In this document: one piece after another, positions 10,108 through 36,409 of the stretch
Position numbering within the stretch: position 1 is the first letter of the stretch
How the letters are laid out: the number at the start of each line of letters is the position of its first letter
Source: Thermincola carboxydiphila
GTDB taxonomy: Bacteria; Bacillota; Thermincolia; Thermincolales; UBA2595
Direction of reading: 5' to 3'
DNA length: 64,000 nucleotides
NCBI GenBank assembly: GCA_016841725.1
Contig: JAENYP010000002.1
Span: 156,767 to 220,766, forward strand
Translations under genes and position numbers: made by a program
The notes under the pieces: model-generated
What the model was told of the DNA's origin: nothing
What the model saw: the letters and a program-made list of their open reading frames with translations, nothing else
The model's database searches: none

Positions 10108-10178
10108 CACGGTACTCGCGGTTAAAAATTGGGGACAAAGGAGTAGTCCATAAAGGCTATTATTTGACCACGAATAAG

Positions 10179-10297
10179 GGATGGCAGATATGTTCCGGAA
10201 CGACGAGTCTGATGTCCGCTTGTTCGGCGCCCCGCGCAAGCGGGAGCCGGTAACAAGCTGAATCGTAGCCGTCGTGGAGGAATATGTCTGCCATTCC
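10179..10297. repeat. long palindromic element A with GNRA-capped hairpin
   Basis: Almost the whole 243-base gap between two converging genes folds on itself. GGATGGCAGATATGTTCC on the left pairs with the complement of GGAATATGTCTGCCATTCC on the right. Inside this, ACGACG pairs with CGTCGT, then GCTTGTT with AACAAGC, and the apex is CCCGC-GCAA-GCGGG (10231-10244), a GNRA tetraloop. The arms also match elements near 27.2 and 36.35 kb, so this is a dispersed family. It may be a structured RNA, a 3'-end stabiliser or a small mobile palindrome. Confidence 0.75.
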
Positions 10298-10350
10298 TGA
10301 ACTTTTATTGTCCAAAAAAGCAGCCCTCTTATGGGCTGCCTCCATTGTCG

Positions 10351-27108: not shown

Positions 27109-27140
27109 ATAATCCCTTTTCCCCTCCCAGCAATGTCCAG

Positions 27141-27210
27141 CGTAAAGGGGCAGATGAATTGCTCCGACGGCAGCTTTAGCCTTATTCGGAACACATCTAC
27201 CCCTATCCAT
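27141..27210. repeat. palindromic element B
   Basis: AGGGGCAGATG (27146-27156) pairs with CATCTACCCCT (27194-27204) with one mismatch; CTCCGA also faces TCGGAA inside. The arms match elements A (10.2 kb) and C (36.35 kb). It lies 3' of the L,D-transpeptidase gene and upstream of paralog 1. Confidence 0.75.
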
Positions 27211-27236
27211 ATTGATTTATTCATCCAACCCAATTT

Positions 27237-31813: not shown

Positions 31814-32029
31814 TTTAATTTAATCCGATTATTTGACCGGCAGGGTGCTGATAATGTTCAGTATCCTGCCGTTATTTGAGCCTGCTGTTCATCATCGGAG
31901 CAGTACATCTGCCGCTCAAAATTTTTTTGAAAGCAATTTTTTAAATATTCAAACATTTTGAAGGAAATTTTAACTTACCGACGAATATTTATTATTGAGA
32001 ATATTTTGTCAAATAGGGGGGGAGCTTTT

Positions 32030-36228: not shown

Positions 36229-36302
36229 GCCGATTTCCCGAAGAATAAAATAGAAAAAGGATGTCCCGCTCCTCAGGCTGTTGACAAAGTCAGTGATTTT
36301 AA

Positions 36303-36409
36303 GCTTAAAATGTTATAAGACAGGGGTAGATAAATTCCTCCGGCGGGCTACATCTCCGCCATCCGGAACACATCTACCCCTGTCCATATTAGAATTTAAT
36401 GCTTAAAAT
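36303..36409. repeat. palindromic element C with flanking 9-bp direct repeats
   Basis: GACAGGGGTAGAT (36319-36331) and ATCTACCCCTGTC (36372-36384) form a perfect 13-bp stem; CCTCCGG faces CCGGAAC inside, and GGCG/CGCC forms a small apex stem. GCTTAAAAT occurs on both sides (36303-36311 and 36401-36409) in direct orientation, as a target duplication would. It lies just 3' of the BASS permease gene. The arms match elements A and B. Confidence 0.75.

What the first reader, a model, noticed from the sequence alone, without database searches (positions are those of the whole stretch)
10179..10297. Dispersed palindromic element family with three members in one window
Elements A (10179-10297), B (27141-27210) and C (36319-36384) share arm sequence. 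Read in one orientation, each has an AGAYRWATTCCTCCG-like left arm and a CCGGAACAYATCTRCC-like right arm, with different cores between. All three lie 3' of genes. Perfect stem pairing is kept although base sequence varies, which suggests selection for a structure or a self-copying palindrome. I do not recognise it as a named element.
Basis: seen in the sequence. Interest (0 to 1): 0.72.

Follow-up and report, generated by a model that had tools for sequence, protein, structure and literature searches.

The report
Nested mobile palindromes at gene ends
The three sequences belong to a previously unnamed family of about 75 hairpin-shaped mobile repeats in a Thermincola-type bacterium, and in a young subfamily each insertion has duplicated the whole local transcription-terminator hairpin, so both neighbouring genes keep a terminator.

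Summary
A, B and C are members of a dispersed family: 76 places in this 3.88-Mb genome and copies in all nine other genomes sampled from its order (Thermincola and relatives), but in none of the other 241 genomes of a 250-genome phylum sample. The core is a ~106-112-nt hairpin with conserved asymmetric internal loops and strong covariation (22 of 39 pairs changed on both sides, covariation score 0.43 against 0.18 shuffled). Wobbles occur as G-U, hardly ever as A-C, so one strand is the one that folds. There is no Rfam match. Three-species comparison shows filled and empty sites: A and C are absent from T. ferriacetica, B from both relatives. A young subfamily with ~45-bp inverted ends sits between two direct copies of the local terminator hairpin (about 17-40 bp, differing at every locus); three empty sites have one hairpin. 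Copies are intergenic at gene 3' ends (28 convergent, 2 divergent). Inside copies, two further palindromic modules come and go at fixed positions, and orthologous copies can be inverted. No RAYT-type transposase, universal reverse transcriptase or autonomous copy was found. Best reading: a non-autonomous, REPIN/MITE-like mobile hairpin moved by an unidentified enzyme, its arms probably kept matched partly by template switching.

The parts
10173..10302 (+). Element A: near full-length core hairpin of the family (class A, GGCAGAT type)
   Evidence: CM R1 hit G000:C10:166939-167068, E 4e-26; orthologue in G002, empty site in G001
10183..10196 (+). A: 5' arm of outer stem P1, GGCAGATATGTTCC
10205..10216 (+). 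A: conserved 5' side of internal loop, GAGTCTGATGTC (bulged G conserved)
   Evidence: alignment A1
10217..10259 (+). A: variable apical stem (the module that differs between copies and orthologues)
10260..10270 (+). A: conserved 3' side of internal loop, GAATCGTAGCC; covaries with 10205-10216
10279..10292 (+). A: 3' arm of P1, GGAATATGTCTGCC
10143..10172 (.). A: left outer arm (locus-specific, partly complementary to the right flank)
   Evidence: inverted flank match; G002 comparison
10320..10339 (.). Terminator-like hairpin GCAGCCCTCTTATGGGCTGC beside A, between two convergent genes
   Evidence: sequence; read by eye, not scored with a terminator scan
27139..27211 (-). Element B: short, degenerate copy; absent from G001 and G002, where a different terminator-like hairpin occupies the site
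   Evidence: CM hit C10:183905-183977, E 2.9e-4
36315..36388 (-). Element C: internally shortened copy of the inverted-end subfamily; full length in G002, empty in G001
   Evidence: CM hit C10:193081-193154, E 1.2e-11
36275..36318 (+). C: left inverted end, AGGCTGTTGACAAAGTCAGTGATTTTAAGCTTAAAATGTTATAA
36385..36415 (+). C: remains of the right inverted end (CATATTAGAATTTAATGCTTAAAATATGAGG)

Best explanation
A, B and C are copies of a non-autonomous, hairpin-forming mobile repeat confined, in the samples searched, to the order of Thermincola. SHOWN by sequence: about 75 dispersed intergenic copies at gene 3' ends; a conserved one-strand secondary structure; filled/empty sites between species; and, in the young inverted-end subfamily, direct duplication of the entire local terminator hairpin on both sides. 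Fixed ends CAGGCTGYTGACAAAG...TTTGTCAATAAGCTGA abut hairpins that differ at every locus. INFERRED: an enzyme acting in trans recognises the folded strand and/or the inverted ends and inserts copies at terminator hairpins. The target is cut at, or repaired from, the two bases of the hairpin, so gap repair duplicates it and both flanking genes keep a terminator. After insertion, template switching and recombination between arms homogenise, invert and swap the interior, and further small palindromes lodge in it. A host function is not required by the data.
For: Copies: 111 CM rows = 76 places in the own genome; 13-76 CM matches (rows of both strands) in each of nine related genomes and 0 in 31 others; only members of the same order, 9 of 250, in a phylum sample. 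Structure. One-strand folding: G-U 64 against A-C 7 cells in A1, 104 against 7 in A2. Empty sites: A, C, C10:252219 and C10:121373 in G001; C3:61494 and C38:630 in G002 with one hairpin against two in the filled allele. Hairpin duplications: flank direct-repeat score >=28 in 7/75 (G000) and 14/40 (G002) against 1/588 and 0/500 mismatched pairs; uniform architecture in about 25 loci. Location: convergent 28, divergent 2. In-place changes: orthologues inverted at 4 sites, arms made perfect in G001, nested modules present/absent at orthologous sites.
Against: No mobilising enzyme or autonomous copy was found. Hairpin-length duplication is shown only for the subfamily in G000 and G002; 0 of 21 copies from other genomes pass the test, and that subfamily's ends are absent from G001 and the other genera tested. 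At about 14 orthologous full-length sites the core is 96-100% identical while flanks are 84-97%, which would fit selection for a host function. A neighbouring strong hairpin is not general across all copies (38% have one on at least one side).
Confidence: 0.68

Rival explanations
1. A REP/REPIN system in the strict sense: palindromes mobilised by a RAYT (Y1 tyrosine transposase) encoded in the genome.
For: One-strand hairpin, intergenic, tens of copies, non-autonomous: the same logic as REPINs (PMC3116915).
Against: Every Y1 hit in the own genome and those examined in the relatives is IS200/IS605-like TnpA without a flanking family member. There is no Y1 hit in G001 (99% complete), G004 or G006. 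Long hairpin-length target duplications are not a REPIN feature that I know of.
Confidence: 0.1
2. A host-functional structured RNA or 3'-end element (mRNA stabiliser, attenuator or processing signal) maintained by selection, with copies spread incidentally.
For: Covariation, conserved internal loops, 3'-end location, and core more conserved than flanking genes at about 14 orthologous sites.
Against: Orientation to the upstream gene is not biased (18 sense, 27 antisense in co-directional contexts). Orthologous copies are inverted, replaced or missing. The stem is followed by a T-run in only 9/76 and 8/76 on the two strands, so it is not itself a terminator. No Rfam match.
Confidence: 0.15
3. 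Retro- or target-primed mobility by a reverse transcriptase (as for group IIC introns, which also choose terminators).
For: Terminator-linked insertion and a structured strand; RTs occur in several of the genomes.
Against: No RT hit in G001, which is 99% complete and carries 42 matches. There is no group II intron Rfam match. Group IIC insertions do not duplicate the terminator (own knowledge).
Confidence: 0.07
4. Not mobile in recent time: a fossil family whose pairing is kept only by quasi-palindrome template switching.
For: Arm homogenisation, spacer inversion and locus-specific palindromic flanks (24/75 inverted flank matches >=28 against 3/588); such effects are documented elsewhere (PMC8604942, PMC8794818; abstracts).
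Against: Filled/empty sites with single against double hairpins and a lineage-restricted, little-diverged subfamily; G-U over A-C asymmetry is not expected from templated copying of duplex arms.
Confidence: 0.1

Closest known systems
REPINs (REP doublets) with RAYT transposases (PMC3116915)
   Same: Short intergenic inverted-repeat hairpins in tens to hundreds of copies, non-autonomous, predicted to fold as single strands, clustering and inserting into one another.
   Different: No RAYT found; a longer core (106-112 nt) with conserved internal loops; inverted ends and whole-hairpin target duplications in one subfamily.
Bacterial MITE-like repeats (ERIC, NEMIS, Correia, RUP; own knowledge)
   Same: Small, non-autonomous, terminal inverted repeats, intergenic, with filled/empty sites.
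   Different: MITEs borrow an IS transposase and leave a short fixed-length duplication; here no matching IS was found and the duplication has the length of the local hairpin.
Insertion sequences that choose palindromes (IS1397, IS621, ISKpn1 and others in REPs; PMC1525189)
   Same: Target choice is a palindromic extragenic sequence.
   Different: Those split the REP palindrome into two fragments; here the whole hairpin is duplicated intact on both sides.
Mitochondrial repetitive/double hairpin elements and yeast GC clusters (PMC2800124, PMC4478555)
   Same: Mobile hairpins without a known enzyme, accumulating in intergenic DNA and sometimes in tandem.
   Different: Different genetic system; no whole-hairpin target duplication reported in the passages read.

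Membership tests
REP/REPIN-RAYT | Intergenic palindromic repeat, high copy number, hairpin-forming inverted pair | tested here: met
REP/REPIN-RAYT | A RAYT (Y1 transposase) gene flanked by the repeat | tested here: not met
   PF01797 hits are IS200/IS605 TnpA and unflanked; none in G001, G004, G006
MITE | Terminal inverted repeats, no coding capacity, filled/empty sites with target duplication | tested here: met
   inverted-end subfamily only
MITE | Ends shared with an autonomous transposon in the genome | tested here: not met
   end pattern finds only family copies, none longer than about 310 bp
Rfam family | Covariance-model match to a described RNA | tested here: not met
Intrinsic terminator | G+C stem followed by a T-run | tested here: not met
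   9/76 and 8/76 copies on the two strands
Group IIC intron or other retroelement | RT gene available in every genome with copies | tested here: not met
   no RT hit in G001
Integron attC site | One-strand folded recombination site in a cassette array with integrase | not tested
   one-strand folding is similar, but copies are dispersed and not in arrays; integrase not searched

The most novel reading that the evidence does not exclude
A new mode of transposition in which the target is a DNA (or nascent RNA/DNA) hairpin and the two cuts fall at its bases, so the duplication equals the hairpin whatever its length. It would be carried out by an unidentified enzyme on a mobile hairpin that lodges harmlessly in terminators and then collects further palindromes inside itself.
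Probability: 0.33. Interest if true: 0.8.

Novelty: new variant of a known kind. Interest (0 to 1): 0.6.

Why it matters
If right, this is a bacterial mobile-repeat family without a recognisable transposase, using terminator hairpins as targets and duplicating them intact, so that insertion need not cost the host a terminator. It gives a ready natural series (empty site with a single hairpin; filled site; inverted; nested; collapsed to a mini-hairpin that is itself a target) for asking how palindromes spread and keep their pairing.

Tried and rejected
Rfam at gathering and permissive thresholds: nothing over the elements. RAYT/Y1: only IS200/IS605 TnpA. Autonomous IS with the same ends: none. 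RT-borne mobility: RT missing from G001. Element as terminator: T-runs rare. A possible fourth member at 31896-31913: about what chance gives, sharing only one arm, rejected. Expectation that every copy sits beside a strong hairpin: not so, mainly the inverted-end subfamily and a few others. Literature: no description of these repeats found in Thermincola and no paper on whole-hairpin target duplication among the terms tried; subscription journals are not covered.

Full report
CHECK OF THE OBSERVATION. The arm motif is far above chance in the window (9 against 1.0 expected) and in the genome (102 matches with up to 2 mismatches, 2 for the reversed control pattern). Stem pairing is strong but not perfect: C has mismatches and B is degenerate.

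ANATOMY. Nineteen full-length copies align over 133 columns. Read 5' GGYAGATRTGTTCC first, the core is: outer stem P1 (about 19 pairs with its extension); a GGA/GGA-like internal loop; a short helix; a second internal loop with GAGTCTGAYGTC facing GARTYGTAGCC, with a conserved bulged G; then a variable apical stem. Of 39 consensus pairs, 22 show two-sided changes in the own genome. 97% of cells are paired, the covariation score is 0.43 against 0.18 in shuffles, and it falls below 0.07 when partners are slid. In 28 copies, nearly all from other species of the order, 27 pairs have two-sided changes and the score is 0.49; that alignment was fitted to the model and leans towards it. On this strand, departures are G-U rather than A-C (64:7 and 104:7 cells). 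Three nearly fixed pairs supply most of the G-U cells; without them the ratios are 17:7 and 37:7. This points to a folded single strand of one sense, DNA or RNA.

DISTRIBUTION. The covariance model finds 76 places in the own genome, 13-76 matches (rows of both strands) in each of nine genomes of the same order, and none in 31 others. In a sample of 250 genomes of the phylum only the order's own members respond. G001 is a Thermincola ferriacetica MAG: its contig C13 has the same length (203,297) as JAENZJ010000002.1, found by pattern search, and the same element. The own genome is in the same genus as G001. Copies are intergenic: neighbours are convergent at 28, co-directional at 45 and divergent at 2 of 76 places, typically tens of bases past a stop codon (ORFs called by a simple longest-ORF rule). 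In co-directional settings the folding strand is sense in 18 and antisense in 27, so a 3'-UTR RNA signal is not favoured.

MOBILITY. Synteny across G000, G001 and G002 was read from about 1 Mb of fetched contigs. A is present in G002 and absent in G001; C is full length in G002, shortened in the window and absent in G001; B is absent in both. C3:61494 has an empty site in G002 that reads ATACAGATTAGGGCAGCCTAAGGCTGCCCTAAT, one hairpin, where the filled allele has the element between two copies of that hairpin. C38:630 in G002 and C10:252219 (filled in G002, empty in G001) show the same.

HAIRPIN-LENGTH DUPLICATION. A young subfamily, seen only in G000 (13 hits) and G002 (17 hits) and not in five other genomes of the order, has ends CAGGCTGYTGACAAAGTCAnTAATTTTGAnCT... 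and ...CAAAAAATATGGGGTTTGTCAATAAGCTGA about 45 bases outside the core. Directly outside these fixed ends stands the local terminator hairpin on both sides, in direct orientation, often with A-rich sequence before the left copy and a T-run after the right one. Examples: ACCGGATGCCTGAAACATCCGGT, CAAGGAGAATACTTCTCCTTG, GTGGCAGGTATGTTCCTGCCAC, GAGTGGCAGTTCATATCAAAATGAACTGCCACTC. The lengths range from about 17 to 40 and follow the hairpin. Statistically, direct flank repeats of score >=28 occur in 14 of 40 G002 copies and 7 of 75 G000 copies, against 0/500 and 1/588 flank pairs drawn from different loci. In 21 copies from other genomes none passes, so the rule is shown for this subfamily only. Two target hairpins in G002 (L251, L254) resemble collapsed copies of the family itself. 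The simplest reading is cutting or repair at the two bases of the hairpin; a random long duplication filtered by selection for intact terminators is the main alternative.

CHANGE IN PLACE. Orthologous full-length sites in G000 and G002 fall into two groups: about 14 with cores 96-100% identical (flanks 84-97%), and about nine at 78-84%, of which four are inverted. At C10:89234 the three species carry the same site but different apical stems and a compensated U-A/C-G change in P1. In G001 two short copies have perfect arms where the other species keep asymmetric ones (C10:98646 and C10:145648 orthologues). Flank-to-flank inverted similarity beyond the core is common (24/75 against 3/588). Arm homogenisation and spacer inversion are the known products of template switching (PMC8604942, PMC8794818). 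So covariation here is evidence for a maintained palindrome, not by itself for an RNA function.

NESTING. A 52-bp palindromic module (CATGGC...GGGGTA) lies at one fixed place, 5' of the apical hairpin, in at least six copies with different apical stems. It is present in G002 and absent in G000 at the orthologous site C38:84400, where the rest of the element is 99% identical. A second module of about 79 bp replaces or interrupts the 3' internal loop and differs likewise between C3:70239 and its G002 orthologue.

MECHANISM SEARCH. Y1 transposases are IS200/IS605 TnpA and missing from G001, G004 and G006. Reverse transcriptase is missing from G001. Copies with the inverted ends never exceed about 310 bp, and two orthologous copies lack the core altogether (L285, L288). 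The enzyme is unknown; a host structure-specific nuclease or recombinase is as possible as a transposase.

CONCLUSION. Shown: a structured, order-restricted, dispersed repeat family with recent insertions and whole-hairpin duplications. Inferred: one-strand recognition, hairpin-directed insertion and template-switch maintenance. Not shown: any host function or the identity of the enzyme. It works like REPINs and MITEs but fails the defining partner test of each (RAYT; autonomous IS).

Noticed in passing
G000 C10 and C25 (e.g. C10:141214, 142490, 245623; C25:49185), G001 C13:114317, G002 C1:141477: A second dispersed family of long modular palindromes with outer arms GGCTCCGGAAATGACC...GGTCATTTCCGGAGCC and inner GGAAAATCTTGTACAACACCTCACCATAT; roughly 25 blast hits per Mb of fetched sequence, often upstream of genes, interior modules variable.
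   Followed up: partly
G000 C38:84400 flank, C25:456053 flank, C37:27105 flank, C19:25327 flank: A repeated terminator-like hairpin CCCTCTACTTAGCCAGGATAGCTTAATGTAGAGGG beside several elements at unrelated loci, perhaps itself dispersed.
   Followed up: no
L006:640-1900 (G000:C28): An IS605-type element with a broken TnpA sits directly beside a short, apparently disrupted copy of the palindrome (GAAGTGGCAGATATGTTCCTCC).
   Followed up: no
L044/L288 (G000:C19:170577) and L285 (G002:C18:13839): Orthologous coreless derivatives: left and right inverted ends joined directly next to one terminator hairpin.
   Followed up: partly
C35:5023, C31:24890, C14:201245 and G002 orthologues: Copies with locus-specific outer arms are 98-100% identical between species whose flanking genes are only 84-90% identical; selection or recent exchange not resolved.
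   Followed up: partly
L046:1495-1530 (G000:C24:46081): A plain terminator AAACAGGCTGTTGACAAAATCAACAGCCTTTTT shares half its stem with the element's left inverted end, a possible origin of that end.
   Followed up: no
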